A DNA stretch of 38,214 nt from Syntrophorhabdaceae bacterium (GTDB lineage Bacteria > Desulfobacterota > Syntrophorhabdia > Syntrophorhabdales > Syntrophorhabdaceae). The stretch is from contig DASXUJ010000138.1 in the NCBI GenBank assembly GCA_036504895.1, positions 1 to 38,214 on the forward strand, written 5' to 3'. Positions 8,787-23,034 of the stretch are shown piece after piece (positions within the stretch are counted from its first letter, which is position 1; every line of letters starts with the position of its first letter). A program made the position numbers and the translations under genes. Below the pieces are notes generated by a model. It had not been told where the DNA came from and did no database searches. It saw nothing but the letters and a program-made list of their open reading frames with translations.

Positions 8787-9140
8787 ATGTTTGAGTATGT
8801 AGCAATTTTCGTGATGTTCTGCCTTGCCGGTATCATCGCCACCGTCATCATAGGGGCTTCCCATCTCCTCGGTCAACGAACCCAAAACAGGATCAAATTA
8901 GCACCCTATGAGTGTGGTACCACGACGATCGGCCCTACCCGCAGAATCATGACCATTCGGTACTATATCGTGGCAATGCTCTTTCTGGTATTTGACATAG
9001 AAGTAATATTTCTCTACCCCTGGGCTGTGGTGACCAAGAAGCTCGGCCTCTTCGGTTTTGTGGAGATGATGGTATTTGTACTCATCCTCTTTATCGGGTA
9101 CATCTACATTTGGAAAAAAGGTGCGTTAGAATGGGAATAG
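8787..9140 (+). CDS. nuoA: NADH-quinone oxidoreductase subunit A
   Basis: A 117-residue membrane subunit of complex I (three transmembrane helices) that joins the membrane arm to the quinone site. Conserved segments visible are [17 protein letters not shown] in the first loop (with the family Cys) and the [14 protein letters not shown] helix. First gene of a 13-gene operon. AAAGGA lies 8 bases before the ATG. Its last codons overlap the start of nuoB by 10 bases, a sign of translational coupling. Confidence 0.97.
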
Positions 9141-9625
9141 AAGATTCTTCATTAGTTAAACCCGTTGATTACATCATAAACTGGGCGCGAAAGAATTCAC
9201 TCTTTCCGGTGACCTTCGGCCTTGCGTGCTGTGCCCTTGAAATGATGGTCGCAAGCTCCGCGGAATACGATATTGCGCGATTCGGGGCGGAAGTGTTCAG
9301 GCCGTCGCCGAGGCAGTCGGACCTTATGATCGTGGCGGGCACCCTTACGAAAAAAATGGCGCCTATGGTCAAGAGAATTTATGAGCAGATGCCGAATCCG
9401 AAATGGGTCATCGCCTTCGGGGCATGTGCTTCATCGGGCGGTATCTTCAGATCTTACGCAGTGGTACAGGGGGTAGACCAGATTATCCCCGTCGATGTAT
9501 TTATTCCCGGTTGTCCGCCGAGACCCGAGGCCCTTCTCAAAGGCCTTATGGAACTTCAGAAGAAGATACAGAAGGAGACGTTAAAAGACAGGCCGTTAAT
9601 AACTTTACCTGGGAAGAGGGCATGA
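9131..9625 (+). CDS. nuoB: NADH-quinone oxidoreductase subunit B
   Basis: A 164-residue peripheral-arm subunit that holds iron-sulfur cluster N2 next to the quinone site. The four ligands are visible: the tandem Cys33-Cys34 in [10 protein letters not shown], Cys99 in FGACASSGG and Cys128 in IPGCPPRPE. The ATG at 9131 gives the expected family N-terminus; a TTG at 9110 would add seven residues with no support. Its stop overlaps the nuoC ATG by 4 bases. Confidence 0.97.
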
Positions 9626-10122
9626 TAAGCAGCAACAGGGTCTTCGAGAAACTTTCAGAGGTTTTCGGGCGAAAAATCATTCATACCGCCATAAATATGG
9701 GCGAGCCTGTAGTCGCATTGGACAAAGGATCGATACGGGAGGTGCTCACCTTCCTGAGGGATGATCCGGAGCTCTCCTATCAAATGCTCGTCGAGCTCTT
9801 CGCCATAGATTGGCAGGGCCAGGAGCCGAGGTTCGAGATTGTCTATATCCTCCGCTCTCTCCTTCACAACGGCAGGGTCACCGTGCGGGCGCGTTGCGGC
9901 GAGGACGGCGTCAAAACAGTAAGCGACCTCTGGAATGCTGCCAACTGGCTGGAACGGGAAGCATTCGATATGTTCGGCATACGCTTCATCAACCATCCGG
10001 AGCTTCGAAGAATTTACACCGACGACGATTTCGAGGGATTTCCCTTGAGGAAAGATTTTCCCCTGGAGGGAAAGGACTTCGATAAGCCCTTTACAGTCCA
10101 CTTTAAGGAAGAAAAGGCGTAG
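9622..10122 (+). CDS. nuoC: NADH-quinone oxidoreductase subunit C
   Basis: A 166-residue peripheral-arm subunit (30-kDa family) that stabilises the interface between the hydrophilic arm and NuoD. The family signature [12 protein letters not shown] followed by [19 protein letters not shown] is complete. The start is the ATG overlapping the nuoB stop by 4 bases. C and D are separate genes here, not the NuoCD fusion found in enterobacteria. It ends directly against the nuoD ATG with no gap. Confidence 0.96.
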
Positions 10123-11295
10123 ATGACAGAATCAAAATATATGACCATCAATATGGGGCCGCAGCATCCCGCGACCCATGGCGTCCTCCAGTTCATCCTT
10201 GAGCTGGACGGCGAGACAGTGGTGAAAAGCACGCCCCGCATCGGGTACCTCCACCGTGGCATGGAAAAGCTCATGGAGGCCAAGACATACTGGCAGGCGC
10301 AGCCCCTTACCGACAGACTCGATTATACAAGCGGCATGTCGAATAACCTTGCCTATTGCCTCGCCGTGGAAAAACTCCTGGGTATCGAGATACCCAAACG
10401 GGCGCAGTACATCAGGGTAATGTTGTGCGAGATGCAGCGTATCGCCGCCCATATACTCTGGCTGTCCACCCATGCCCTTGATATAGGGGCCATGACGCTT
10501 TTCTTCTACGGGTTCCGTGAAAGAGAGAACTGTCTCAAGGTGCTGGAATCGGTTTCCGGCGCAAGACTTATGCCCGACTATATCCGCTTCGGCGGGCTCA
10601 GGGAAGACCTTCCCGACGGCTTCATGGAGGCGGCGAAGACCTTCATAGAGGATTTCCCGCGTAGAATAGATGAATATGAGACACTCCTCACCCAGAACAT
10701 CATCTGGAGAAAACGTACTCAGAACGTAGGCTTCCTTTCCGCGGAAGACGCTATAAGCTACGGGGTTACAGGTCCCGTGCTCAGGGCTTCGGGCGTAAAT
10801 TACGACGTGCGGAAGGCATACCCCTATTCGAGTTACGATGAATTCGATTTCGAGATACCTCTGGGCACCAAAGGCGACGTGTACGAACGATACCTCGTGA
10901 GATTGCAGGAGATGAGACAGTCCGTGAGGATCGTGATGCAGGCTTTGGAGAAGCTGCCGTCGGGACCCATCAATGCTGCGGCCCCCGAATTCGTGCCGCC
11001 CGCGAAGGAATTGGTTCAGAAGGATATGGCAGCCCTTATCCGCCACTTCAAGCTCATGGCGGACGGCATCAAGCCCCCGAAAGGGGAGGCATATGCCTCG
11101 ATAGAATCATCAAAAGGTGAGCTCGGCTTCTATATTATCAGCGATGGCACGAGCAAGCCTTACAGAGTCAGGATCCGGCCGCCGTCATTCCTCAACGTCG
11201 CTTCCATTCCAAAGATGATTGACGGCCAGTTAGTGGCGGACGTAGTAGCCGCCATCGGAAGCGTTGATGTGGTGCTCGGCGAAATAGACAAATAA
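10123..11295 (+). CDS. nuoD: NADH-quinone oxidoreductase subunit D
   Basis: A 390-residue 49-kDa-family subunit that forms the quinone-binding cavity with NuoB. MGPQHPATHGVL near the N-terminus carries the conserved His of the quinone site, and RIGYLHRGMEKL follows. The C-terminal RIRPPSFLNVASIP and IGSVDVVLGEIDK blocks are typical. The nickel-ligand cysteines of related hydrogenases are absent, as expected for a true Nuo subunit. The ATG abuts the nuoC stop; AAGGA lies upstream. Confidence 0.97.
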   Translation: MTESKYMTINMGPQHPATHGVLQFILELDGETVVKSTPRIGYLHRGMEKLMEAKTYWQAQPLTDRLDYTSGMSNNLAYCLAVEKLLGIEIPKRAQYIRVMLCEMQRIAAHILWLSTHALDIGAMTLFFYGFRERENCLKVLESVSGARLMPDYIRFGGLREDLPDGFMEAAKTFIEDFPRRIDEYETLLTQNIIWRKRTQNVGFLSAEDAISYGVTGPVLRASGVNYDVRKAYPYSSYDEFDFEIPLGTKGDVYERYLVRLQEMRQSVRIVMQALEKLPSGPINAAAPEFVPPAKELVQKDMAALIRHFKLMADGIKPPKGEAYASIESSKGELGFYIISDGTSKPYRVRIRPPSFLNVASIPKMIDGQLVADVVAAIGSVDVVLGEIDK

Positions 11296-11306
11296 TAAGG
11301 TTAATT

Positions 11307-13256
11307 ATGGCAGAAGTATTATTCAGTTCATGGCAAGGCGAGATCATCGACAACAGGGGCAAAGGGAAAGACGCCTATGAACCCCTGAAGAAGGCGAAAC
11401 TCCCCGGGGAATTCGACAGGGGTCCCGTGAAAGCATTCATGGGCTGGGACGGCATCATTCTGTGCGATGAGAATGTGGACATGGTAGACATGTCCCTTAA
11501 ATACGCCGAATCGGTTCAGAGGGAGTCGTGCGGCAGGTGCATTCCGTGCAGGATCGGGAGCAAGGTCATCTGGGGGATCCTGAATGCTATGGCCCTGGGG
11601 AATGGCAAAGCGGGCGACATCGGAAAGATAAGGGAAATTGCCGCTACCATTCGGGACGGCTCCAAATGCCAGATAGGGCAGACCGGTTTTATTCCCGTGC
11701 TCCAGGCCCTCGAGTTCTTCGGACCCCAGTTCGAAAGCGCGATCAAGGAAGGGCGAAAAGCCACGTCGGGCGATTACAGAATTTCCGTCACCGCTCCGTG
11801 TATGAGCGTGTGCCCGACCCAACTCGATATACCCAAATATGTTGAAGATATCACCGAAGGGAGATTCTCCGATTCCCTCGCCACCATACGGCAGAATACA
11901 TGCCTCGCCGGTACGTTGGGCAGGGTCTGCGTCAGACCTTGCGAATCGAATTGCAGGCGGGCAAATATCGATGATCCTATATCGATCAAGAGCCTCAAGC
12001 GGTTTGTCGCCGACTATGAGATAGAGAAGAATGTAGAGCAGCCCGTTCGGGAAGTACCCCGGGGCGGCAAAAAGGTGGCCGTGATCGGCGCGGGGCCTGC
12101 CGGACTCTCATGCGCCTACTACCTCGCTCAGATGGGGCACCAGGTAACGGTATTCGAGAAACTGGGAGAACCCGGCGGTATGGCGGCGGTAGGTATCCCC
12201 GATTATCGTCTGCCCCGCTCCGTGCTGACCGGTGAGGGCAAGTTCGTAGAGTCCTTAGGCGTGGAGATCCGCTACAATATGACTATCGGCAAAGATGTGA
12301 CCATTCCGCAGCTTCAGAAGGAGTACGACGCCATCTTCATCGGTGTGGGCGCCCACGGCAGCTCGCCTATGGGTGTGGAAGGCGAAGATAGCGGATATCA
12401 GGGTTTTATTGCCGGCGTGAAATACCTCCTCGATATAAACCTTGGAAAGGATCCCTATCCCGAAGGAAAGAAAGTCGTGGTCGTAGGCGGCGGCAACGTG
12501 GCCATGGACTGCGTGAGATCTTCTTTCAGAGTCGGCAAACCCGATGTGCACCTCGTCTATCGGAGGACCAAGGCGGAAATGCCCGCCGATCCGGTAGAGA
12601 TTCATGAGGCGGAAGAGGAAGGCGTAGACTTTCACTACCTCTGCAATCCCAAAAGGATTATCGCGGAGAACGGAAAGGTGAAAGGCGTGGAATGCATCCG
12701 GATGGAGCTCGGCGAGCCTGACCAGAGCGGACGCAGGAGACCGGTGCCGGTGCCTGACTCCGAGTTTATAATCGAGACCGATATTCTCATACCCGCCATC
12801 GGCCAGATGATTGACTGGTCTTTCCTCGAGAAGAAGGAAGAGTTCACCATTACCCGGTGGAATACATTTCAGGTGAATCAGGAGACCTTCGAGACCTCGG
12901 TAAAAGGCATATTCTCCGCGGGCGACTGCGAGACCGGACCTGACGTGTTGGTGAGGGCATGCGGGAACGGGAAAAGGGCCGCATGGAAAATCGATGAATA
13001 TCTGAAGGGTGAGGAGCCGAAGGCACGGATGGGCGAAAAATTCGTCCGCTTTTTCGGCGACATCAAAGTCTATGATAAAAAAGAAAATGTGGGATTCCTG
13101 GGCGATAAAAAGCGCACGAACCTGAAGCCCATGGAACCGGAAAAAAGAAAATGGGTGTTTGATGAAGTGGAAGAGGGCTATAAAGTGAATGAAGCAATCG
13201 GAGAGGCGTCACGGTGCCTTCGCTGTTACAGAATAGGCATGATTGCGGTAGGGTAA
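11307..13256 (+). CDS. NuoF C-terminal domain fused to GltD-like NAD(P)/FAD oxidoreductase (in place of nuoEF)
   Basis: A 649-residue fusion at the operon position of nuoE-nuoF. Residues about 40-145 match only the C-terminal part of NuoF: ESCGRCIPCRIG with Cys75, Cys78, Cys81, and Cys121 in SKCQIG, the ligand pattern of cluster N3. The NuoF FMN/NADH domain (GRGGAGFPTG-type loop) is missing. Residues about 160-570 are a glutamate-synthase-small-subunit-like flavoprotein: PCMSVCP (Cys165, Cys169), GRVCVRPCESNC (Cys208, 212, 216), FAD motif GAGPAGL (261-267), nucleotide motif VVGGGNVAMD (392-401), VYRR (417-420; RR often reads NADPH) and IFSAGDC. Residues about 605-640 resemble the segment normally at the N-terminus of GltD, ending SRCLRC (Cys637, Cys640). 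The inferred role is electron entry to NuoG from NADPH or another donor, by way of FAD. ATG follows nuoD by 11 bases. Confidence 0.9.
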   Translation: MAEVLFSSWQGEIIDNRGKGKDAYEPLKKAKLPGEFDRGPVKAFMGWDGIILCDENVDMVDMSLKYAESVQRESCGRCIPCRIGSKVIWGILNAMALGNGKAGDIGKIREIAATIRDGSKCQIGQTGFIPVLQALEFFGPQFESAIKEGRKATSGDYRISVTAPCMSVCPTQLDIPKYVEDITEGRFSDSLATIRQNTCLAGTLGRVCVRPCESNCRRANIDDPISIKSLKRFVADYEIEKNVEQPVREVPRGGKKVAVIGAGPAGLSCAYYLAQMGHQVTVFEKLGEPGGMAAVGIPDYRLPRSVLTGEGKFVESLGVEIRYNMTIGKDVTIPQLQKEYDAIFIGVGAHGSSPMGVEGEDSGYQGFIAGVKYLLDINLGKDPYPEGKKVVVVGGGNVAMDCVRSSFRVGKPDVHLVYRRTKAEMPADPVEIHEAEEEGVDFHYLCNPKRIIAENGKVKGVECIRMELGEPDQSGRRRPVPVPDSEFIIETDILIPAIGQMIDWSFLEKKEEFTITRWNTFQVNQETFETSVKGIFSAGDCETGPDVLVRACGNGKRAAWKIDEYLKGEEPKARMGEKFVRFFGDIKVYDKKENVGFLGDKKRTNLKPMEPEKRKWVFDEVEEGYKVNEAIGEASRCLRCYRIGMIAVG

Positions 13257-13269
13257 AGAAGGAATGGGC

Positions 13270-15696
13270 ATGATAACGGTTACAATAGACGGCAAGGAGA
13301 TCCAGGCAGAAGAAGGCAGGACGATACTTGAGATCGCGAGGCAGAACGATATCCCTATACCTACCCTTTGCTATCACGAACATCTCCTTCCCATAGGTTC
13401 CTGCAGGCTGTGCATTGTTGAGATCGAGGGTTACGACAAGCCCATGGCGTCCTGTGATACCGTGGCCCGGGACGGGATCTCGGTAGTCACGAGATCGGAC
13501 AAGCTTTTTGCCATGAGGCAGGAGTACTTGAAGTTCCTTCTCATTCACCATCCCCTCGAATGTCCTATCTGTGATGCGGCAGGAGAATGCCGGCTCCAGG
13601 ACCTCGCATTCGAGCACAAGCTGGAACAGGTCGATCTTTCGGCGGAAAAAGAGGCGAAGAAGGCCGAACCTTATTCCACCTCCCTTATAAGATACGCGGA
13701 AAGCCGTTGTGTCCTCTGTCTGCGCTGTGTCCATGCATGTCGTGAGATTTCGGGAAGAACTGTCCTTGAAATAGCGCAGAAGGGAATACAGGCACGGATG
13801 GCGCCGGTGAACGGCCTTGACTGCATCTCCTGCGGCGAATGCCTGGCGGTCTGCCCGGTGGGCGCCCTCGTCGAACGGGTAAGTCCGCTGAAGAGCAGGA
13901 AATGGCAGACCAGACGGGTTTCGACCACCTGTGCTCACTGCGGATATGGGTGTGGCCTCACTCTCGATGTCTATGGGGATCGAGTTATCACGAAAGTCCT
14001 CACGGACGTGGACCAAATGCCGAACAAGGGAAGCCTCTGTATCATGGGCAGGTTCGGCTATGATTTTGCCAACAATCCCGCCCTTCTTAAAGAAGCGGTC
14101 ATCAAGGAAGAAGGCGTGGCAAAGACTGTGAGTCTCCAGGAATCGGTTGAAGCGGTGGCGGCAGGCCTATCCAGGCTCCTGAAACAGGGCAAGCCCGCGG
14201 GCTTTATCGTCTCTCCCAGGGCCACGAACGAAGAGATCTCCATGATCTCCCAGATCGCAGGCTGTTTTCCCATGAGCACCATAGGGACATCGGGCAATTA
14301 CCATACAGGAAAGGTCCGGGACGTGATGGACCGGATGGGCATCCCGCCCGTCTATAATTACGAGGACCTCGCAGGGTGCGATCTTGTGATTGCCGCAGGC
14401 GCCGACCTCCTCGGAAATAACCATCTCCTTGGAAACAGGGTAAGGGAGGCGGTAAAGAAAAATGGCTCCAGGGTCGCGGTGATAGACCCGTCTCCGACGG
14501 CACTTACCAGAATCGCTGATTCATGGCTCAATATTACGCCCGGATCGGATGCGCTCCTGTTCCAATTGATCGCAAAGCGCCTGTTGACGGAGAAGAGATA
14601 TTCTCCCCAGGGGGAAAAGATAGAGGGCTTCAAGGAACTGTCTGCGGTGGTCGAAAAAATCGACGAAGCTGCGGCCCTGCTTGAATGCGGAACGGATAAA
14701 AAGGCATTCGAGAGATTTATGACGCTTCTTACGGGTGCCGGCAGGATCGCCTTCATCGTGGGCTCCGGTCTGAGTGCGCGTGAGGCGAGTCTTACTTCTC
14801 TTTTCAACGTAAGTCTCCTTTTGGGTTTAGAGGACAGGTGCCTTGTAATGGCGACTTCCCTGCAATCGAATGCGGTCGGGGCGGCAGCGATTCTCCCCAA
14901 TGCAGTGGAGGCCCACCGCGTGGTCACTAACCCGGGGATCGGGGGGCTCTTCATTTACGAAGACGACCCCTTCTCTTATATGAATGCGGCCGAGACGGAA
15001 GAGGCCCTGAAGCAGAAGGCGTTCATTGCCGTCTGCGATGCGCTCCCTTCAAAGGTTGCGGATTATGCCCATGCCGTCATACCCACCGGCACATTTGCGG
15101 AAAAAGAGGGGACCTGCGTTGCGGAGGACGGCTTTGTCAGGAAAGTCCGGCGTGCGCGCTCCGGATCCTCGCAGGGTTATGAATTTCTAAGGGCCCTCGT
15201 GAGAAAGCTCTGCGGCGGTCTCAATCAGAGCGAAAAGGAGACAACGGAAAGCCTTTACAAAAGCGGAGTTCTTGTAAAAGACGGGTCAGGCCGCGAAAGA
15301 ATTGCGGCAGGTTCGTCGGAGAAGCGGTTTATTACGGACGTCGGAACGTCGGAAGTCCGAGGGCAAAGGGTCTGCACCCTGGTCTTGAGGAACGTGTTCC
15401 TGAGCCACCATCTTGCCGATAAAAATACCTATTCTAAAACGGTCTATGTAAATAATCCGCCCGTGGCAGGAGATATGCTCTTTATCTCCGCCGAGGACGG
15501 GAATGCCCTCGGGATCGCGGAGGGGGACATGGTCTGCCTCGAAACCGATCTTGCAACGGTGACGGAGCGTGCTTCGATCAGGAAGGGTCTCAAACAAGGT
15601 GTGGCGGAGTACCGGATGCTCACGAAAAGACAGGAGATCCTGAAGCTTGCGCGGGGTTACGGTAAACATATTGCAGTGACAATGAAAAAAGGTTAA
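13270..15696 (+). CDS. nuoG: NADH-quinone oxidoreductase subunit G
   Basis: An 808-residue subunit that conducts electrons through the peripheral arm. Ligand sets visible in order: [2Fe-2S] N1b (Cys34, 45, 48, 62); N5 (His94, Cys98, 101, 107); two ferredoxin-type sets for N4 and its neighbour (Cys147, 150, 153, 157 and Cys185, 188, 191, 195); and an N7-type set CAHCGYGC plus SLC (Cys221, 224, 228, 257). The rest is a molybdopterin-oxidoreductase-like fold that probably holds no cofactor. The ATG at 13270 is preferred because AAGGA lies 6 bases upstream; the ATG at 13264 touches AAGGA directly. It lies right after the NuoF'-GltD fusion, its probable electron donor. The N-terminal domains also resemble formate dehydrogenase and hydrogenase subunits, but the operon context decides for NuoG. 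Confidence 0.94.
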   Translation: MITVTIDGKEIQAEEGRTILEIARQNDIPIPTLCYHEHLLPIGSCRLCIVEIEGYDKPMASCDTVARDGISVVTRSDKLFAMRQEYLKFLLIHHPLECPICDAAGECRLQDLAFEHKLEQVDLSAEKEAKKAEPYSTSLIRYAESRCVLCLRCVHACREISGRTVLEIAQKGIQARMAPVNGLDCISCGECLAVCPVGALVERVSPLKSRKWQTRRVSTTCAHCGYGCGLTLDVYGDRVITKVLTDVDQMPNKGSLCIMGRFGYDFANNPALLKEAVIKEEGVAKTVSLQESVEAVAAGLSRLLKQGKPAGFIVSPRATNEEISMISQIAGCFPMSTIGTSGNYHTGKVRDVMDRMGIPPVYNYEDLAGCDLVIAAGADLLGNNHLLGNRVREAVKKNGSRVAVIDPSPTALTRIADSWLNITPGSDALLFQLIAKRLLTEKRYSPQGEKIEGFKELSAVVEKIDEAAALLECGTDKKAFERFMTLLTGAGRIAFIVGSGLSAREASLTSLFNVSLLLGLEDRCLVMATSLQSNAVGAAAILPNAVEAHRVVTNPGIGGLFIYEDDPFSYMNAAETEEALKQKAFIAVCDALPSKVADYAHAVIPTGTFAEKEGTCVAEDGFVRKVRRARSGSSQGYEFLRALVRKLCGGLNQSEKETTESLYKSGVLVKDGSGRERIAAGSSEKRFITDVGTSEVRGQRVCTLVLRNVFLSHHLADKNTYSKTVYVNNPPVAGDMLFISAEDGNALGIAEGDMVCLETDLATVTERASIRKGLKQGVAEYRMLTKRQEILKLARGYGKHIAVTMKKG

Positions 15697-15699
15697 GGC

Positions 15700-16698
15700 A
15701 TGGAACCTATTTACTCCATAATCGAACTGGTGGTGAAGAACCTGGTGGTAGTGATGGTCCTTATGGGGCTGGTCGCCTATACCACATTACTTGAGAGAAA
15801 ACTCCTCGGCCGGATTCAGGTGCGGTTCGGGCCGAACAGGGTAGGGCCCTTCGGGCTTCTCCAGCCTATAGCGGACGGAATTAAATCCTTTTTCAAGGAA
15901 GATATTATCCCCGACGAGGCGGATAAGACCCTTTACGTAATTGCCCCGGGGATTTGTCTCTTCACCGCCCTCTCCATGTTCGCGGTCATCCCCTTCGGCG
16001 ACACCGTAACCATCCTCGGCAGGAATATAAAGATGGTAGTGGCGGACATCGATATGGGCGTTCTCTACGTCCTTGCCCTGGCGACACTTGGAGAATACGG
16101 GGTAGTACTCGGAGGCTGGGCATCGGGTAGTAAATACGGCGTTCTCGGATCGCTTCGGGCGGCCGCTCAGATGATAAGCTATGAGACAGCCCTCGGTCTG
16201 GCCGTAATAGGAACCATCATTCTTGCCGGTTCCTTGAGGCTCTCCGATATCGTCGCGGCCCAGCAGGTATCGGGCTGGTTTATTCTCAAATACCCCTTCG
16301 GCTTCATCTTCTACATCATCGCGGGGCTTGCCGAGATAAACAGAACGCCCTTCGACATGCCCGAATCTGAAAGCGAACTGGCCTGTGGGTTCAACATAGA
16401 ATATAGCAGCATGAAATTTGCCACCTTCATGATCGCAGAATACGCTCACATGTTCGTCGTCGCGGGAGTGGCGACTACCCTGTTCCTCGGCGGGTGGTCA
16501 GGGCCATATTTACCGGGACCCATCTGGTTCCTTATTAAAGTTTTTATCTTGATCTTCTTCTTTATCTGGGAGAGAGGGACATTCCCGCGCCTGAGGTACG
16601 ACCACATCATGAAGTTCGGATGGAAGGTGCTTTTGCCCCTTACCCTTCTCAATGTAGTTGTCACCGCCCTCCTCGTGGCATTGGGAGTAATTAAATGA
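15700..16698 (+). CDS. nuoH: NADH-quinone oxidoreductase subunit H
   Basis: A 332-residue membrane subunit with about eight helices that forms the quinone entry channel and links electron transfer to proton pumping. Family blocks: RFGPNRVGPFGLLQPIADGIK in the first loop and EINRTPFDMPESESELACGF in the third, with its conserved acidic residues. It begins 3 bases after the nuoG stop. Confidence 0.97.
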   Translation: MEPIYSIIELVVKNLVVVMVLMGLVAYTTLLERKLLGRIQVRFGPNRVGPFGLLQPIADGIKSFFKEDIIPDEADKTLYVIAPGICLFTALSMFAVIPFGDTVTILGRNIKMVVADIDMGVLYVLALATLGEYGVVLGGWASGSKYGVLGSLRAAAQMISYETALGLAVIGTIILAGSLRLSDIVAAQQVSGWFILKYPFGFIFYIIAGLAEINRTPFDMPESESELACGFNIEYSSMKFATFMIAEYAHMFVVAGVATTLFLGGWSGPYLPGPIWFLIKVFILIFFFIWERGTFPRLRYDHIMKFGWKVLLPLTLLNVVVTALLVALGVIK

Positions 16699-16708
16699 AG
16701 GTGATGCC

Positions 16709-17125
16709 ATGATAATAATTCCGCTCTTGAAAGGGCTTGCCCTTACGGTGAGCAGGCTTTTCACGAAGCCGATCACCATTCAATACCCTGAAAAGAAATA
16801 CAAAGTTCCGGCCAGATGGAGGGGTATTCATTTTTTCAGGAAGAATGACGCGGGTGAGACGACATGCGTCGCCTGCGGTCTGTGCGTCAATGTCTGCCCT
16901 AATGCCTGCATCACCCTCGAGATCGGGGAACGGGCGGACGGAACACGGTATCCTCTTAAGTATGAGATCGATGCGTGGCGGTGCATCTACTGCGGATTCT
17001 GTCAGGACGCCTGCCCGGTCAATGCCATAAGGCTGGGGGAGAACTACGAGCAGGCTTATTACCGGAAAGAGGATTTATGCCTCGATACGAAAAAGCTTCT
17101 TTCCATGAATGAGGAGAAGGCATGA
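16709..17125 (+). CDS. nuoI: NADH-quinone oxidoreductase subunit I
   Basis: A 138-residue ferredoxin-like subunit holding clusters N6a and N6b. Both CxxCxxCxxxCP motifs are present (Cys53, 56, 59, 63 and Cys92, 95, 98, 102). The amphipathic N-terminus anchors it on NuoH. It hands electrons from NuoG to NuoB. Its stop overlaps the nuoJ ATG by 4 bases. Confidence 0.96.
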   Translation: MIIIPLLKGLALTVSRLFTKPITIQYPEKKYKVPARWRGIHFFRKNDAGETTCVACGLCVNVCPNACITLEIGERADGTRYPLKYEIDAWRCIYCGFCQDACPVNAIRLGENYEQAYYRKEDLCLDTKKLLSMNEEKA

Positions 17126-17649
17126 TTGCGGTGGGGTTCAAATGGTTCATCTTTTCTGCGATGGCGATTATTGCCGTGGGCTCCTCTCTTATGATGGTAA
17201 CCAGAAGAAACCCCATCCACAGCGCACTGTGGCTCATCGTGGCCTTTTGTTCCCTGGCAGGGATCTACGTGCTTCTCAACGCGACTTTTATGGCCCTTGC
17301 CCAGGTGATGGTGTACGCAGGGGCTATCATGATGCTGGTCCTCTTCGTGATCATGCTCATTCATCTCGAATCGGACCTGGTGGAGAAGGCAAAGCGCTCG
17401 TTTCCGAAGGCAATAGGAGCGATTATCACTATCCTCCTTTTCGTCCAGGTAGCTGCGGGGATTGCTGCCTTCCAGAACGTGGGGAAGAAGGGCGCCATAA
17501 CCCCTGAGGTCATGGCTGCGGCAGGAAACGCCCAGGTGGTAGGATCGATGCTGTATGGGAAATACGCCTTCGCCTTTGAAGTGGCATCCGTGCTACTTCT
17601 CGTGGGCATCGTGGGGGCGGTGGTGTTGGCAAAAAGAGTCAGGAATTAG
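17122..17649 (+). CDS. nuoJ: NADH-quinone oxidoreductase subunit J
   Basis: A 175-residue membrane-arm subunit with five predicted helices. The conserved helix-3 segment QVMVYAGAIMMLVLFVIML, including the pi-bulge tyrosine region, is intact, as are RRNPIHSALWLI and the final hydrophobic helix. ATGA overlap with nuoI. Confidence 0.95.
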   Translation: MIAVGFKWFIFSAMAIIAVGSSLMMVTRRNPIHSALWLIVAFCSLAGIYVLLNATFMALAQVMVYAGAIMMLVLFVIMLIHLESDLVEKAKRSFPKAIGAIITILLFVQVAAGIAAFQNVGKKGAITPEVMAAAGNAQVVGSMLYGKYAFAFEVASVLLLVGIVGAVVLAKRVRN

Positions 17650-17658
17650 GAGAGGATG

Positions 17659-17970
17659 ATGTTACCCGATATCCCGCAGAATTTGTATTATATCCTGGGT
17701 GCAGTGCTCTTTACCATAGGCGCCGTGGGCGTTATTACCAGGCGGAACGCGATAATCGTCTTCATGTGTGTCGAGCTGATGCTGAACGCGGTGAACCTTA
17801 CCTTTATCGCCTCCGGCAACTTCCTCAATTCCCTTGACGGGGTTATGTTCGTCTTTTTCATAATGGCGGTGGCAGCAGGCGAGGCAGCGGTCGGGCTCGC
17901 CATATTCGTGCTCATTTTCAGGCTAAAAGGCACGATCAACATTGACGATATCCATTTGCTTAAAGGCTGA
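17659..17970 (+). CDS. nuoK: NADH-quinone oxidoreductase subunit K
   Basis: A 103-residue three-helix antiporter-like subunit (MrpC homologue). It has the conserved membrane glutamates, in CVELMLNAVNL and in AAGEAAVGLAI. Two ATG codons stand in tandem; the second (17659) lies 6 bases from AGGAG and is preferred, while the first (17656) would add one Met. Confidence 0.95.
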   Translation: MLPDIPQNLYYILGAVLFTIGAVGVITRRNAIIVFMCVELMLNAVNLTFIASGNFLNSLDGVMFVFFIMAVAAGEAAVGLAIFVLIFRLKGTINIDDIHLLKG

Positions 17971-17981
17971 GAGGGTTTTAA

Positions 17982-19970
17982 ATGGCTGAGTATATCTGGC
18001 TTATCCCCGTGTTTCCCGCAATAGGCTTTCTTATCAACGGCCTTTTCGGGAGGAGTTTTGCGAAAGGCCTTACCGCCTGGGTCGCGTGCCTGTCCGTCTT
18101 CTGCTCATTCGTGGTGTCGGCTTTGATCTTCGCACAGTTCCTCAACCTTCCCGCCGAAGCGAGGGTTTTCGAGATGACCGCCTTCGACTGGATCGTCTCA
18201 GGGGACTTTTCGACCAAGATAGGCTTCAGGATCGATGCCCTCTCCATCATCATGTGTCTCGTGGTGACGGGCGTGGGATCCCTCATTCACATATATTCCG
18301 CAGGTTACATGCACGAGGACCCGGGGTTCAGGCGCTACTTCACCTACCTCAATCTCTTCGTGTTCATGATGCTCATTCTGGTGACGGCGGATAACCTCCT
18401 TCTCATGTTCGTGGGATGGGAAGGCGTGGGCCTCTGCTCATATCTTCTTATAGGGTTCTGGTACGAGAAAGATTCGGCCGCCAATGCAGGGAAGAAGGCT
18501 TTTATCGTAAACAGGATCGGCGATTTCGGGTTCCTCCTTGGCATGTTCCTTCTTGTTTCCACCCTTGCCGCCAAGGGGGTATGGACCCTTAACTATGCCG
18601 AGCTTCAGGCGAATGCGCACCTGATCGGTCCGTGCCTCGCCATTCCCATCACCCTACTTTTCTTTGTGGGCGCCACGGGCAAATCGGCCCAGATACCGCT
18701 CTACGTGTGGCTGCCGGACGCGATGGAAGGCCCCACTCCGGTAAGCTCGCTGATCCATGCGGCTACCATGGTTACGGCGGGAGTCTATATGATCGCGAGG
18801 CTCAATTTCTTCTTTGTCATGGCTCCTACGACTATGATGGTCGTCACCGTCATCGGTCTGTTTACGGCCTTTTTCGCGGCTACCATGGGATGTGCCCAGT
18901 ACGACATAAAGCGCGTGCTCGCCTATTCGACGGTGAGCCAGCTCGGGTTCATGTTTGTGGCAGTGGGTGTAGGCGCGTATGCTGCGGGCATATTTCATCT
19001 TATGACCCATGCCTTCTTTAAAGGTCTTCTCTTTCTCGGAGCAGGCAGCGTCATGCATGCCATGAGCGGCGAGCTCGACATGAGGAAGATGGGCGGTTTA
19101 TGGAAGAAAATACCTATAACCTACGGGACTTTTCTCGTGGCATGTCTCGCCATCGCGGGCGTCCCCGGTCTTTCCGGGTTCTTCAGCAAGGATGAGATTC
19201 TCTGGAAAGCCTTCAGCCTGGATAATGGTAAATTTTGGTATATGGCATTCGGTATGCTCACCGCCGGCATCACCGCATTTTACATGTTCCGCATGTTCTT
19301 CAATACTTTCCATGGCGAGTGCAGGGCCTCCGAGGAAGTAAAGCATCATATCCACGAATCTCCCAAGGTCATGACCATTCCGCTCATGATCCTGGCGGTC
19401 CTTTCGATTGTGGGCGGCTATGTGGGTGTTCCCCATCTATTGGGGGGCTCCAACAGGATCGAGCAATGGCTGGAGCCTATATTCGGCGCGGGCCATCAGC
19501 CTGCCGCGCACGTTGCCTCCTGGTCCTTTTTCAATAACGCCTATGCATCGTCCGGGGCAACGGCCCATGGAGACGAAGCGGCGACGGAGATGACCCTCAT
19601 GGCCATAGCGGTCCTCATAGGTCTTCTCGGTATATTTGTAGCCTGGTTCTTCTATATCAAGAATCCGGAAATTCCGAAGCGCTTCGTGAAGAGGTACAAT
19701 AACTTCTTTACCCTGGTGCACAACAAATATTACGTCGATGAAATCTATGGATTTATTTTCGTAAAGGGGCTTTTCGGGCTCGGCAAACTCTGCAAGAGCT
19801 TTTTTGACGAGAAAATTATCGACGGAGCCATTAACGGAGTGGCATCCCTTATGGGTGGAGTAGGAAGCCTCATCAGGCGCGTTCAGAACGGCCTGGTACA
19901 GGGTTATGCCTTTGCCATGATAATCGGGGCGATTTTTGTGATCTATTTCATAGTGAGAATGATTCCATGA
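17982..19970 (+). CDS. nuoL: NADH-quinone oxidoreductase subunit L
   Basis: A 662-residue proton-pumping membrane subunit, MrpA-antiporter-like, at the far end of the membrane arm. Typical segments: LLLMFVGWEGVGLCSYLLIG with the essential Glu, GKSAQIPLYVWLPDAMEGPTP with the essential Lys region, and SSLIHAATMVTAGVYM. The long C-terminal part after about residue 500, with a final helix, fits the lateral helix of NuoL. Length is normal. Confidence 0.97.
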   Translation: MAEYIWLIPVFPAIGFLINGLFGRSFAKGLTAWVACLSVFCSFVVSALIFAQFLNLPAEARVFEMTAFDWIVSGDFSTKIGFRIDALSIIMCLVVTGVGSLIHIYSAGYMHEDPGFRRYFTYLNLFVFMMLILVTADNLLLMFVGWEGVGLCSYLLIGFWYEKDSAANAGKKAFIVNRIGDFGFLLGMFLLVSTLAAKGVWTLNYAELQANAHLIGPCLAIPITLLFFVGATGKSAQIPLYVWLPDAMEGPTPVSSLIHAATMVTAGVYMIARLNFFFVMAPTTMMVVTVIGLFTAFFAATMGCAQYDIKRVLAYSTVSQLGFMFVAVGVGAYAAGIFHLMTHAFFKGLLFLGAGSVMHAMSGELDMRKMGGLWKKIPITYGTFLVACLAIAGVPGLSGFFSKDEILWKAFSLDNGKFWYMAFGMLTAGITAFYMFRMFFNTFHGECRASEEVKHHIHESPKVMTIPLMILAVLSIVGGYVGVPHLLGGSNRIEQWLEPIFGAGHQPAAHVASWSFFNNAYASSGATAHGDEAATEMTLMAIAVLIGLLGIFVAWFFYIKNPEIPKRFVKRYNNFFTLVHNKYYVDEIYGFIFVKGLFGLGKLCKSFFDEKIIDGAINGVASLMGGVGSLIRRVQNGLVQGYAFAMIIGAIFVIYFIVRMIP

Positions 19971-19980
19971 AGGTGTGTAA

Positions 19981-21564
19981 ATGAGCATGACGTCGATTCC
20001 TTTACTGAGTATCCTGATATTCTTTCCTCTCCTGGGCGCGGTGCTGCTGCTCTTCGCCGACAGAAAGAGAACCCTTTTTATAAAAGTCTTTACCCTGGTA
20101 ATCTCTCTTATCGAGTTTGTCATTTCCCTTCCCCTCTTTTTCCTTTTTGATGAAAAGGCGAAGGTGATGCAGTTCGTGGAGAAGGCGCAGTGGTTTCCGG
20201 AGTGGGGGATCAGCTATTTTCTCGGCATCGACGGGATAAGCCTTCTTCTGGTTATGCTCACCACCTTTCTTACCATTATTTGCGTGCTCTGTTCGTGGGA
20301 ATCCATCGAAGAAAGAGTCAAGGAGTATTACATTACCTTTCTTTTTCTCGAAACGGCGATGATCGGCACCCTGTGCTCCCTCGATCTTATCCTCTTTTAT
20401 ATATTCTGGGAGCTTATGCTGGTACCCATGTACCTGCTCATCGGCATCTGGGGCGGCCCGCGGAGGATTTACGCGGCAATCAAGTTTTTTCTCTTCACCA
20501 TGGCGGGAAGCGTCCTGATGCTCCTGGCCATACTGGCGCTCTATTTTACCTATTTTAATGAGAGCGGGGTTTACACCTTTAACGTGCTGGAGCTTTACAA
20601 GGCGAGCATCCCCATCGTGAAGCAGTATTGGCTCTTCGGGGCATTCGCCCTCTCCTTTGCCATAAAGGTCCCCATGTTTCCTGTCCACACGTGGCTGCCG
20701 GATGCCCATACGGAAGCTCCTACCGCAGGCAGCGTAATCCTGGCGGGAGTACTCCTCAAGATGGGTACTTATGGTTTTCTCAGGTTTGCCATACCCCTTT
20801 TCCCGGGCGCGGCCTTCGACGCGGTGCCTATTATCTCGACACTCGCTGTAATCGGCATCATTTATGGGGCAATAGTAAGCATGATGCAGCCGGACCTCAA
20901 AAGGCTTATCGCCTTTTCGAGCGTAAGCCACCTCGGATATGTAATGCTCGGCATGTTTGCTTTCAATATGCAGGGTATGGAAGGAAGCATTTACCAGATG
21001 CTGAACCACGGCATAAGCACGGGCGGCCTTTTTCTCATCGTGGGTATGGTGTATGAGAGAAGGCACACGAGAATGATCGCCGAATTCGGCGGCTTATCGA
21101 AGGTTATGCCCGTTTTCGCGGTCTTTTTCATGATTATCACCCTCTCTTCTATCGCTCTGCCGGGGACAAACGGCTTCGTGGGAGAGTTCCTCATCCTTCT
21201 CGGGGCTTTCAAGGCCAACAAGGTGTACGGCGTACTCGCCACTACGGGAGTGGTCCTGGGCGCAGTCTACATGCTCTGGATGTTCCAGAGGGTTATGTTC
21301 GGCGTGGTGACCAAAGAAGAGAACAAGAAGCTGAAAGATCTTGGGGCACGGGAGATTCTTATATTGGTCCCCATGGTTTTTCTGATTATCCTCATGGGCG
21401 TTTACCCGAAAATGTTCTTCAAAAAGATGGATACGACTGTGGTGGCGTATATGGCTTTCCTGAAAGGGAAGAGCGCTCAGCATATGCCGGTTTCGCAAGT
21501 TGCGGCGATACCCGGTATGGCGGGCAGCGAAGTGATTGATAAAGCGACGAAATCGACGAAATAG
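19981..21564 (+). CDS. nuoM: NADH-quinone oxidoreductase subunit M
   Basis: A 527-residue antiporter-like pumping subunit. FYIFWELMLVPMYLLIGIWG carries the conserved Glu, and VHTWLPDAHTEAPTAGSVIL and LLKMGTYG are intact. Intact antiporter-type subunits L, M and N mean that ion translocation is expected even though the electron-input module is unusual. It follows nuoL by 10 bases. Confidence 0.97.
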   Translation: MSMTSIPLLSILIFFPLLGAVLLLFADRKRTLFIKVFTLVISLIEFVISLPLFFLFDEKAKVMQFVEKAQWFPEWGISYFLGIDGISLLLVMLTTFLTIICVLCSWESIEERVKEYYITFLFLETAMIGTLCSLDLILFYIFWELMLVPMYLLIGIWGGPRRIYAAIKFFLFTMAGSVLMLLAILALYFTYFNESGVYTFNVLELYKASIPIVKQYWLFGAFALSFAIKVPMFPVHTWLPDAHTEAPTAGSVILAGVLLKMGTYGFLRFAIPLFPGAAFDAVPIISTLAVIGIIYGAIVSMMQPDLKRLIAFSSVSHLGYVMLGMFAFNMQGMEGSIYQMLNHGISTGGLFLIVGMVYERRHTRMIAEFGGLSKVMPVFAVFFMIITLSSIALPGTNGFVGEFLILLGAFKANKVYGVLATTGVVLGAVYMLWMFQRVMFGVVTKEENKKLKDLGAREILILVPMVFLIILMGVYPKMFFKKMDTTVVAYMAFLKGKSAQHMPVSQVAAIPGMAGSEVIDKATKSTK

Positions 21565-21576
21565 AGGTGCCGGTTC

Positions 21577-23034
21577 ATGGATGTTGTAATTCCTGCTTCA
21601 GACTTCAGATGGATATTGCCTGAGATCGCTCTCACCGGCTGGGCGCTTCTGTTGCTGCTCATCGGCGGCTTCGGAAAGGGGACGATTTCTTCCAGGGTCT
21701 CCGGTATCCTATGTCTCGTGGGCTCCCTTTTTACCATATATTATACCGTGGGCCTGTGGGGAACGAGACAGGATGTGTTCAACGGCCTCTATACGATCGA
21801 CGATTACGGGACTTTTCTGAAAGTCCTTTTTCTCGCGATACTCGCCCTCATCGCCCTCATCTCTTTGAAGTACGGGGAAGAGACGGGAATCGGGTCGGGC
21901 GAGTATTACTCGTTGCTTATGTTCGGTGTTCTGGGCATGATGGTAATGGTCTCTTCCCATAGTTTCGTGACTATTTTTATTGGACTTGAGGTGATGTCCC
22001 TTTCGATTTATGTGCTCTGCGGTCTCATGCGGGACAATGTGAAATCCGTGGAAGCTTCGCTTAAATATTTCCTTCTCGGCGCTTTTGCGACCGCATTCCT
22101 CCTTTACGGCATCGCCCTGATTTATGCCTCCACGGGACTGGTCGATGTGGTTGAGCTGAAGCAGTATATCCTTTCGAAGCAACCGGTCGCCGCTCCCATG
22201 TTTTATATCGGCCTCGGGCTTCTCATCGTGGGGTTCGGGTTCAAGATCGCATCGGTCCCCTTTCACATGTGGACGCCCGATGTCTATCAGGGAGCACCTA
22301 CGTCCGTAACGGCCTATATGGCAACCGGGGTCAAGGCAGCGGCCTTCGGGGCCCTCATGCGGGTCTTTTACACTGCCTTCCTGCCGCTTATAAGCGGGTG
22401 GTCCGAGATTCTCTGGGTGATCGCCGTACTCACCATGTGTGTGGGTAACATCACGGCCCTCGTACAGCAGGACGTGAAGCGCATGCTCGCCTATTCCAGC
22501 ATAGCCCATGCAGGATATATTCTGGTGGCCTTCGTTACAGGAGACAAGGTGCTCAGCTCGAGTGTGCTCTTCTATCTGGTGGCATACGCCTTTATGAATA
22601 TCGGGGCTTTTACGGTGGTCATGGTCCTTGGACGGAAAGGCGACGAGAATACGGACATCGAAAGCTATGCGGGTCTCGGTAGACGCCATCCTTTCGTGGC
22701 CCTCTCTATGAGCATATTCCTCCTCTCCCTGGCGGGCGTGCCGCCTTTGGCGGGGTTTGCGGGCAAATTCTATGTTTTCAGTGCAGCGATCAAGGCACAC
22801 TATTACTGGCTGGCCGTAATAGGCGTGCTCACGAGCGCAATAGCCGCATACTATTATCTCAGGGTCATCATGTACATGTACTTCAAAGAGCCTTCAACCA
22901 TGGCGGATCCCGTGGAAAACGAGCCCCAGTACGGGGCATCCATGCTGATCTGCATTTGGGCCCTCCTCCACATCGGTATCTTTCCAAGATATTTCCTTCT
23001 TCTCGCACAGAAGGCAGTGGGGATTTTCAGCTAA
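21577..23034 (+). CDS. nuoN: NADH-quinone oxidoreductase subunit N
   Basis: A 485-residue antiporter-like pumping subunit and last gene of the operon. FKIASVPFHMWTPDVYQGAP, VTAYMATGVKAA and the QQDVKRMLAYSSIAHAGY block are typical. It ends 63 bases before the convergent transglycosylase gene; only a weak hairpin (TGCCG...CGGCA) and no uridine tract was found between them, so the terminator is not evident. Confidence 0.97.
   Translation: MDVVIPASDFRWILPEIALTGWALLLLLIGGFGKGTISSRVSGILCLVGSLFTIYYTVGLWGTRQDVFNGLYTIDDYGTFLKVLFLAILALIALISLKYGEETGIGSGEYYSLLMFGVLGMMVMVSSHSFVTIFIGLEVMSLSIYVLCGLMRDNVKSVEASLKYFLLGAFATAFLLYGIALIYASTGLVDVVELKQYILSKQPVAAPMFYIGLGLLIVGFGFKIASVPFHMWTPDVYQGAPTSVTAYMATGVKAAAFGALMRVFYTAFLPLISGWSEILWVIAVLTMCVGNITALVQQDVKRMLAYSSIAHAGYILVAFVTGDKVLSSSVLFYLVAYAFMNIGAFTVVMVLGRKGDENTDIESYAGLGRRHPFVALSMSIFLLSLAGVPPLAGFAGKFYVFSAAIKAHYYWLAVIGVLTSAIAAYYYLRVIMYMYFKEPSTMADPVENEPQYGASMLICIWALLHIGIFPRYFLLLAQKAVGIFS

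What the first reader, a model, noticed from the sequence alone, without database searches (positions are those of the whole stretch)
11307..13256. Complex I operon lacks NuoE and the NuoF flavin domain; a NuoF-tail/GltD fusion takes their place
Seen: at the nuoEF position there is a 649-residue protein with the N3-cluster domain of NuoF but no FMN/NADH domain, joined to a GltD/NfnB-like FAD and NAD(P) flavoprotein with an RR pair in VYRR. No nuoE is present, yet all seven membrane subunits and a full NuoG are. Known: GltD-like proteins usually take electrons from NADPH. Inference: this complex I may be fed by NADPH or, in a reversed or bifurcating scheme, link NADPH, ferredoxin and menaquinone. 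Such a design would change the energy balance of the organism.
Basis: partly seen in the sequence, partly recalled or inferred. Interest (0 to 1): 0.82.

Follow-up and report, generated by a model that had tools for sequence, protein, structure and literature searches.

The report
Respiratory complex I with NADPH-type input
In anaerobic bacteria of the Syntrophales and many relatives, the proton pump called complex I has lost its NADH-binding parts and carries in their place a protein that looks built to use NADPH, so these cells probably link a different fuel carrier to energy conservation; some relatives even carry a formate-oxidising enzyme in the same gene cluster.

Summary
Window 8787-23034 is a tight 13-gene operon, nuoABCD-FUS-nuoGHIJKLMN, with no nuoE and no FMN/NADH domain. 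FUS (11307-13256) is the N3-cluster tail of NuoF joined to a GltD-type FAD/NADPH flavoprotein. It is no artefact: about 40 other operons of the phylum carry it beside nuo genes, and in 12 genomes of the order it accompanies the only nuoD. The window's own genome also has a separate canonical NADH complex I (contig C115).

I read it as an NADPH-linked complex I (NADPH-FAD-[4Fe-4S]-N3/NuoG-menaquinone), probably reversible. All 50 aligned homologues keep the YRR motif and the Lys and Arg matching StnC K170 and R239, residues of a non-bifurcating flavin; bifurcation here is disfavoured. FUS is SfrB-like in layout (SfrAB is Geobacter's NADPH dehydrogenase).

The NuoG is not ordinary: it groups with formate dehydrogenase (FDH) subunits, has an extra [4Fe-4S] motif and a lost active site. 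In ten sister nuo operons an FDH with an in-frame TGA occupies the NuoG slot (SECIS-like matches in three of three tested). I found no description of this in the papers searched. Function is inferred; nothing was assayed.

The parts
8787..9140 (+). nuoA
   Evidence: PF00507 1.4e-37
9110..9625 (+). nuoB; N2 ligands CC, C, C present
   Evidence: TIGR01957 above cut-off; sequence
9622..10122 (+). nuoC (ORF opens at 9403; likely start at the ATG at 9622)
   Evidence: PF00329; start by comparison with homologues
10123..11295 (+). nuoD, separate from nuoC; HPATHG and DRLDY motifs present
   Evidence: TIGR01962 582.9 bits, cut-off 459; sequence
11307..13256 (+). FUS: NuoF N3-cluster tail fused to a GltD-type NADPH flavoprotein, 649 aa
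   Evidence: AF2 pLDDT 90, pTM 0.88
11529..11669 (+). N3 [4Fe-4S] ligands C75, C78, C81, C121 of FUS
   Evidence: C75, C78, C121 in 50/50 homologues, C81 in 45/50
11790..12032 (+). Fer4_20 domain of FUS: C165, C169, C208, C212, C216 and K231 (= StnC K170)
   Evidence: PF14691; invariant 50/50; alignment to StnC
12069..12965 (+). FAD and NADPH Rossmann domains; R301 (= StnC R239), Y418-R419-R420
   Evidence: PF07992; invariant 50/50
13215..13226 (+). C-terminal CxxC (C637, C640), proposed to complete the distal [4Fe-4S] cluster of the GltD part
   Evidence: invariant 50/50; role inferred
13264..15696 (+). nuoG of formate-dehydrogenase type, 810 aa: N1b, N5, two full CxxCxxCxxxC motifs, N7; no Sec/Cys-His active site
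15700..16698 (+). nuoH
   Evidence: PF00146 1.6e-122
16709..17125 (+). nuoI, eight cysteines for N6a/N6b
   Evidence: TIGR01971 above cut-off; sequence
17122..17649 (+). nuoJ
   Evidence: PF00499 3.8e-40
17656..17970 (+). nuoK
   Evidence: PF00420
17982..19970 (+). nuoL
   Evidence: PF00361, PF00662
19981..21564 (+). nuoM
   Evidence: PF00361
21577..23034 (+). nuoN
   Evidence: PF00361

Best explanation
The operon encodes an energy-converting complex I whose NADH module (NuoE plus the FMN domain of NuoF) has been replaced by a SfrB-like protein, FUS, working with a NuoG related to formate dehydrogenase subunits. Proposed path: NADPH gives a hydride to FAD in the GltD part. Electrons pass singly through its two [4Fe-4S] clusters to the N3 cluster in the NuoF tail, or directly to NuoG, then along NuoG (N1b, N4, N5), NuoI (N6a, N6b) and NuoB (N2) to menaquinone, coupled to proton pumping by the membrane subunits. 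The same path can run backwards, with the proton gradient driving menaquinol-to-NADP+ electron flow. Shown: gene content, domains, conserved residues, conserved operon. Inferred: NADPH specificity, electron path, direction and quinone type.
For: 42 homologue loci have FUS with nuo genes and none has a nuoE or nuoF in that operon. 18 of 46 genomes of the order have the short fusion; in 12 of them a single nuoD exists and lies directly before the fusion, and canonical NuoG was not found. FUS and NuoD distances correlate over 26 operons (r = 0.77, 0 of 999 permutations as high). Ligands for N3 and the GltD clusters, and the NADPH motif, are invariant. K231 and R301 align with StnC K170 and R239, residues shown by mutation to matter for NADPH-dependent electron transfer through a FAD judged non-bifurcating (PMC10482914). 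The AF2 model matches StnC over 478 residues at 2.2 A. [quoted passage not shown] PMC2825233). The nuo core keeps N2, N6a/b and quinone-site motifs.
Against: No activity, complex or expression data. The distance from GltD clusters to N3 or N1b could not be measured. The extra [4Fe-4S] motif of this NuoG could change the path. The genome also holds a canonical NADH complex I, Stn-like genes and a HydB-GltD hydrogenase, so the physiological role is uncertain. NADH use cannot be excluded by sequence alone.
Confidence: 0.72

Rival explanations
1. A direction choice within the main explanation: the complex runs mainly in reverse. Menaquinol from acyl-CoA oxidation is driven uphill by the proton gradient to make NADPH, which the HydB-GltD hydrogenase and Stn then turn into H2, NADH or reduced ferredoxin.
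For: Relatives are Syntrophales, often syntrophic (general knowledge). The same genome has a HydC/HydB-GltD/HydA cluster and Stn-like genes that could consume NADPH; an acyl-CoA dehydrogenase and a UbiE/MenG-type methyltransferase lie beside the operon.
Against: Sequence does not reveal direction; the genome also has a canonical complex I.
Confidence: 0.4
2. FUS is a bifurcating or confurcating centre linking NADPH, ferredoxin and menaquinone.
For: The GltD fold is shared with NfnB, whose FAD bifurcates; R301 aligns with StnC R239, the counterpart of NfnB R201.
Against: The cluster ligand is Lys as in StnC, not Glu as in NfnB (50/50). No HydB/StnB-type FMN module is in the operon. The StnC flavin with the same Lys and Arg is judged non-bifurcating (PMC10482914).
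Confidence: 0.08
3. FUS and NuoG form a soluble SfrAB-like NADPH dehydrogenase that happens to be encoded within the operon, while the 11-subunit Nuo core takes electrons from ferredoxin or another donor.
For: SfrAB-like and FdhA-FUS pairs occur without nuo genes; 11-subunit cores without an N module exist (PMC11238625; PMC5736913).
Against: The position between nuoD and nuoG is conserved through many families; FUS distances track NuoD and NuoH; FUS keeps the NuoF N3 domain, which in complex I sits next to NuoG.
Confidence: 0.15
4. NuoE and NuoF of the second operon (C115) assemble with this complex and FUS is an accessory.
For: A complete nuoEF pair exists in the genome.
Against: That pair belongs to its own E. 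coli-type complex with its own NuoG. 12 relatives have only one nuoD, in the fusion operon, and no canonical NuoG. FUS and NuoF would compete for the same site.
Confidence: 0.04

Closest known systems
SfrAB, NADPH dehydrogenase / NADPH:Fe(III) oxidoreductase of Geobacter
   Same: Two-protein module: SfrB is GltD-like and SfrA NuoG-like (PMC7483475). Pairs that I label SfrAB-like by layout (L185-L189) have a short NuoF-tail/GltD fusion 44-46% identical to FUS plus a NuoG-like partner.
   Different: The SfrAB-like pairs are not next to membrane subunits. Their SfrB-like members lack C81 of the N3 motif. Their link to the Geobacter accession was not checked here.
StnABC / NfnABC transhydrogenase (PDB 8oh5, 9bov, 9n5u)
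   Same: Best structural and sequence match for the GltD part, including K170, R239 and the C-terminal CxxC region.
   Different: In StnC the GltD domain is inserted into NuoG in one chain, and a NuoF/HydB-type FMN module (StnAB) is the partner; here GltD is fused to an FMN-less NuoF tail inside a complex I operon.
Canonical 14-subunit complex I (Nuo), and 11-subunit forms without NuoEFG
   Same: All membrane and Q-module subunits, the N3 domain and a NuoG-like subunit.
   Different: No NuoE, no FMN/NADH domain, FDH-type NuoG with an extra cluster motif, GltD flavoprotein added.
HydABC-type hydrogenase with a HydB-GltD fusion (same genome, C44)
   Same: Same order, NuoF tail then GltD; 44% identity over FUS 41-641.
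   Different: Keeps the thioredoxin-like, FMN and SLBB parts and pairs with an [FeFe] hydrogenase; forms a separate clade (100 SH-aLRT).
Formate dehydrogenase alpha subunits (6tg9, 9wxb, 9ktl, 7vw6)
   Same: Closest solved relatives of the window NuoG by sequence and by predicted fold.
   Different: Window NuoG lacks the Sec/Cys-His active-site motif.

Membership tests
Complex I (Nuo/NDH-1) | Q and P modules NuoABCDHIJKLMN | tested here: met
Complex I (Nuo/NDH-1) | NuoE and full NuoF with FMN/NADH domain (14-subunit form) | tested here: not met
   No PF01512 or PF01257 match in the operon; all matches in the genome lie on other contigs
SfrAB | Short NuoF-tail/GltD protein next to a NuoG-like partner | tested here: met
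SfrAB | Nesting in the SfrB-like clade (L185-L189) | tested here: not met
   These five form their own clade (100); window FUS lies outside it. That they are SfrB is by layout only.
SfrAB | NADPH-specific dehydrogenase activity | not testable with these tools
   needs enzyme assay
StnABC/NfnABC transhydrogenase | GltD domain with Lys cluster ligand and Arg near FAD | tested here: met
   K231 = K170, R301 = R239; 50/50
StnABC/NfnABC transhydrogenase | GltD inserted in NuoG in one chain, with StnAB FMN module | tested here: not met
NfnAB | Glu ligand at the FAD-proximal cluster | tested here: not met
   Lys in 50/50; Glu at the aligned place in 5jca and 5vj7
Formate dehydrogenase alpha subunit (for window NuoG) | Sec/Cys-His active-site motif | tested here: not met
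   STIGTSGNYHTGKVRDVMDRM at the aligned position
Formate dehydrogenase alpha subunit (for window NuoG) | Grouping with FDH alpha subunits apart from NuoEF-type NuoG | tested here: met
   100 and 99 SH-aLRT, quick tree, root assumed
Flavin-based electron bifurcation | Two acceptor branches from one flavin, with ferredoxin dependence | not testable with these tools
   residue evidence argues against it

The most novel reading that the evidence does not exclude
Across this bacterial phylum complex I carries a swappable input module built from an NADPH flavoprotein (FUS) and a formate dehydrogenase. In several families the FDH looks intact, with selenocysteine, giving one membrane machine that joins formate, NADPH and menaquinone to proton pumping. 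In Syntrophales the FDH site decayed, re-creating a NuoG and leaving an NADPH-linked complex I.
Probability: 0.5. Interest if true: 0.87.

Novelty: new variant of a known kind. Interest (0 to 1): 0.72.

Why it matters
Complex I is usually taken as an NADH enzyme, with cores lacking the NADH module assumed to use ferredoxin or an unknown donor. An NADPH-linked form that is common in one phylum would alter energy budgets for anaerobes that live near the thermodynamic limit. The FDH-bearing sister operons give a series from apparently active formate dehydrogenase to inert NuoG inside the same operon, which makes the old idea that NuoG came from a formate dehydrogenase directly testable. Annotations that count such operons as NADH dehydrogenases would be wrong.

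Tried and rejected
Sequencing or assembly artefact: rejected, same operon in many independent assemblies. Chance ORF or frameshifted NuoF: rejected by conservation and by the AF2 model. N module encoded elsewhere: a canonical nuoEF exists but belongs to another complex. Weak NuoF matches before the nuo genes in L171 and L175 are RnfC-like genes beside an RnfB-like one, by reading the sequence; the NuoE/NuoF-like matches in L035 are a divergent HydC/HydB-like cluster on the other strand. Split 345 + 540 aa NuoG in sister operons first looked like a divided gene; reading across showed one in-frame TGA in an FDH motif, and SECIS_3 matches span the TGA region in all three loci tested, below the family cut-off (61.5, 60.7 and 36.6 bits, cut-off 63). 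Simple folding of the 50 bases from the TGA was not significant by shuffles (mean z -0.8). TIGR01973 does not separate NuoG from FDH: TGA-containing FDH-like frames can pass its cut-off. Direct measurement of cluster distances was not possible, as no coordinates are released. Paper searches for NuoF/GltD, SfrAB with complex I, NuoEF in Deltaproteobacteria and FDH in the nuo operon found no description of this arrangement; the library lacks most subscription journals, so absence is weak evidence. One malformed family search and one malformed paper query gave nothing.

Full report
What is in the window. ORF 11307-13256 (649 aa) begins with the iron-sulfur tail of NuoF (NADH_4Fe-4S, residues 62-144) and continues as a GltD-type protein: Fer4_20 (162-242) and a two-nucleotide oxidoreductase domain (255-553). 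There is no Complex1_51K domain. It lies in a 13-gene run from nuoA (8787) to nuoN (23034) with gaps of -31 to +12 bases. NuoB, NuoI and NuoD keep the cluster and quinone-site motifs. No nuoE is present.

The rest of the genome. The genome (4.35 Mb, 138 contigs, listed as 100% complete) has two NuoD genes. The second, on C115, is in an operon with nuoA, nuoB, a fused nuoCD, nuoE, nuoF (426 aa), nuoG, nuoH and onward. Its NuoG matches E. coli NuoG with 888 bits over the full length. So this organism has a canonical NADH complex I as well as the variant. It also has Stn-like genes on C73 (StnC-like 1253 aa, 870 bits to 9bov_A) and, on C44, a HydC / HydB-GltD (1032 aa) / [FeFe]-HydA cluster. That HydB-GltD is the closest paralogue of FUS in the genome (44% over 41-641).

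Distribution. In named genome contigs, nine loci with the fusion at 62-82% identity came back (L029-L037, labelled Syntrophus, Syntrophales or Deltaproteobacteria MAGs), and those with enough flank show nuoABCD-FUS-nuoG-HIJKLMN. Within the order, 18 of 46 genomes carry the short fusion. Twelve of these (G001-G003, G008, G011, G013, G015-G019, G029) have exactly one NuoD, directly before the fusion, and no canonical NuoG at the threshold used: for them the variant appears to be the only complex I. The other two members of the window's genus that were sampled (G031, G032) lack it, so presence is patchy. Across the phylum 97 of 395 sampled genomes have a match covering most of the first 260 residues, mostly in frames of about 640-730 aa. 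Counting all loci fetched, 42 (one genome twice: L029 and L148) have FUS with nuoD or nuoH beside it, 24 of them outside the order and its named MAG contigs; none has a nuoE or nuoF in that operon, judged by BLAST against one NuoE, one NuoF and HydB/HydC. The three loci with any such match are RnfC-like genes (L171, L175) and a divergent Hyd-like cluster (L035). Other fusions stand next to FDH- or SfrA-like genes without nuo.

Chemistry suggested by residues. In 50 aligned fusions these are invariant: C75, C78, C121 (N3; C81 in 45, glycine in the five SfrB-like ones), C165, C169, C208, C212, C216, K231, R301, Y418-R419-R420, C637 and C640. Counting along the HMMER alignment, K231 and R301 fall on StnC K170 and R239; NfnB-type proteins have Glu at the first place. 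Published cryo-EM and mutants of StnC show that K170 and R239 matter and the authors conclude that its FAD does not bifurcate (PMC10482914). The GltD part of FUS lacks the usual N-terminal CxxC of GltD; the invariant C-terminal CxxC (637/640) may supply these ligands (inference). AF2 gives a confident single-chain model (pLDDT 90, pTM 0.88), best matched by 9bov_A and 8oh5_C (478 residues, 2.2 A for the latter). I could not obtain coordinates, so cluster spacing is untested.

NuoG. The window NuoG has N1b, N5, N7 and two complete CxxCxxCxxxC motifs (149, 187); the C115 NuoG has a single-cluster pattern there. Its best solved relatives are FDH alpha subunits by sequence; by predicted fold (pLDDT 89) FDH alpha subunits rank first with complex I NuoG close behind. 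At the FDH active-site position the window has no Sec or Cys. In a quick ML tree with eleven NuoEF-type NuoGs, four E. coli-type NuoGs, SfrA-like and FDH-type proteins, the window NuoG falls with Sec-FDHs from FUS loci (100 SH-aLRT), apart from NuoGs that pair with NuoEF (99-100) (smaller tree). Support is SH-aLRT only and the root is assumed.

A graded series. In ten nuo operons outside the order (L157, L161, L164, L166, L169, L170, L171, L174, L175, L176) the NuoG slot holds a protein with one in-frame TGA in the motif DHCARLUHS..VAGL..GSGAMTN; L156 has such a gene just before nuoA. SECIS_3 matches lie at the TGA region in L161, L169 and L157 (61.5, 60.7, 36.6 bits; cut-off 63). Others have degenerate sites: L173 (C, no His), L154 (T), L159 (S), L153/L158 (C without His), L163/L168 (G). 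The Syntrophales NuoGs have lost the motif. Regaining a Sec active site is unlikely, so loss from an FDH ancestor is the simplest reading (inference).

How it most likely works. Shown: gene order, domains, ligands, homology. Inferred: NADPH reduces FAD; single electrons go through the two GltD clusters to N3 and on to N1b, N4 and N5 of NuoG (or enter NuoG directly, as in StnC, where GltD delivers to a cluster of the NuoG domain), then N6a/N6b, N2 and menaquinone, with proton pumping. Thermodynamically (own knowledge) either direction is possible. With a HydB-GltD hydrogenase and Stn-like genes in the same genome, reverse flow to make NADPH from menaquinol during syntrophic growth is plausible, as is forward respiration. 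A UbiE/MenG-type methyltransferase and an acyl-CoA dehydrogenase next to the operon fit a quinone and acyl-CoA setting but prove nothing.

Comparison with what is known. SfrAB of Geobacter is the closest characterised two-protein module: believed to pass electrons from NADPH into electron transport (PMC2669807; PMC2825233), with SfrB GltD-like and SfrA NuoG-like (PMC7483475). The pairs I call SfrAB-like (L185-L189) were identified by layout, not by accession. StnABC is the closest structural relative of the flavoprotein part. 11-subunit complex I forms without NuoEFG are known and their donors are unsettled (PMC11238625; PMC5736913); Geobacter has a 12-subunit form whose content I did not check. 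I found no paper describing a GltD fusion, or an FDH, inside a complex I operon; the library is partial.

Verdict. The NADPH reading is likely; bifurcation is unlikely at this flavin. I rate it a new variant of complex I, with the FDH-bearing sister operons as the more surprising part.

Noticed in passing
L157, L161, L164, L166, L169, L170, L171, L174, L175, L176 (and L156 upstream of nuoA): Selenocysteine-type formate dehydrogenase alpha subunit in the NuoG position of a nuo operon with the NuoF-tail/GltD fusion; SECIS_3 matches at the TGA in three of three loci tested.
   Followed up: partly
L144, L151, L162, L177, L179, L182, L184: Fusion plus FDH alpha subunit without nuo genes: probably a soluble NADP-linked formate dehydrogenase.
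   Followed up: partly
L057 9317-14641 (G000 C44): HydC, HydB-GltD fusion (1032 aa) and [FeFe]-HydA: a hydrogenase with both an FMN/NADH part and a GltD/NADPH part; its HydB-GltD is found in most genomes of the order.
   Followed up: partly
L059 57-5602 (G000 C73): StnB/StnC-like transhydrogenase genes (StnC-like 1253 aa).
   Followed up: partly
L214, L216, L219: HydB-like NuoF next to NuoG and NuoH: another unusual complex I input module in the phylum, with NuoG near the SfrA/FDH group.
   Followed up: no
L220, L221: HydB-GltD-like protein (or its end) next to a TGA-containing FDH alpha subunit, in L221 also before nuoH.
   Followed up: no
L171 1745-4074, L175 15480-17809: RnfB- and RnfC-like genes directly before the FDH-bearing nuo operon.
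   Followed up: no
[quoted passage not shown]
   Followed up: no
G031, G032 versus G000: Two other genomes of the window's genus lack the short fusion while more distant genera have it: patchy loss or transfer.
   Followed up: no
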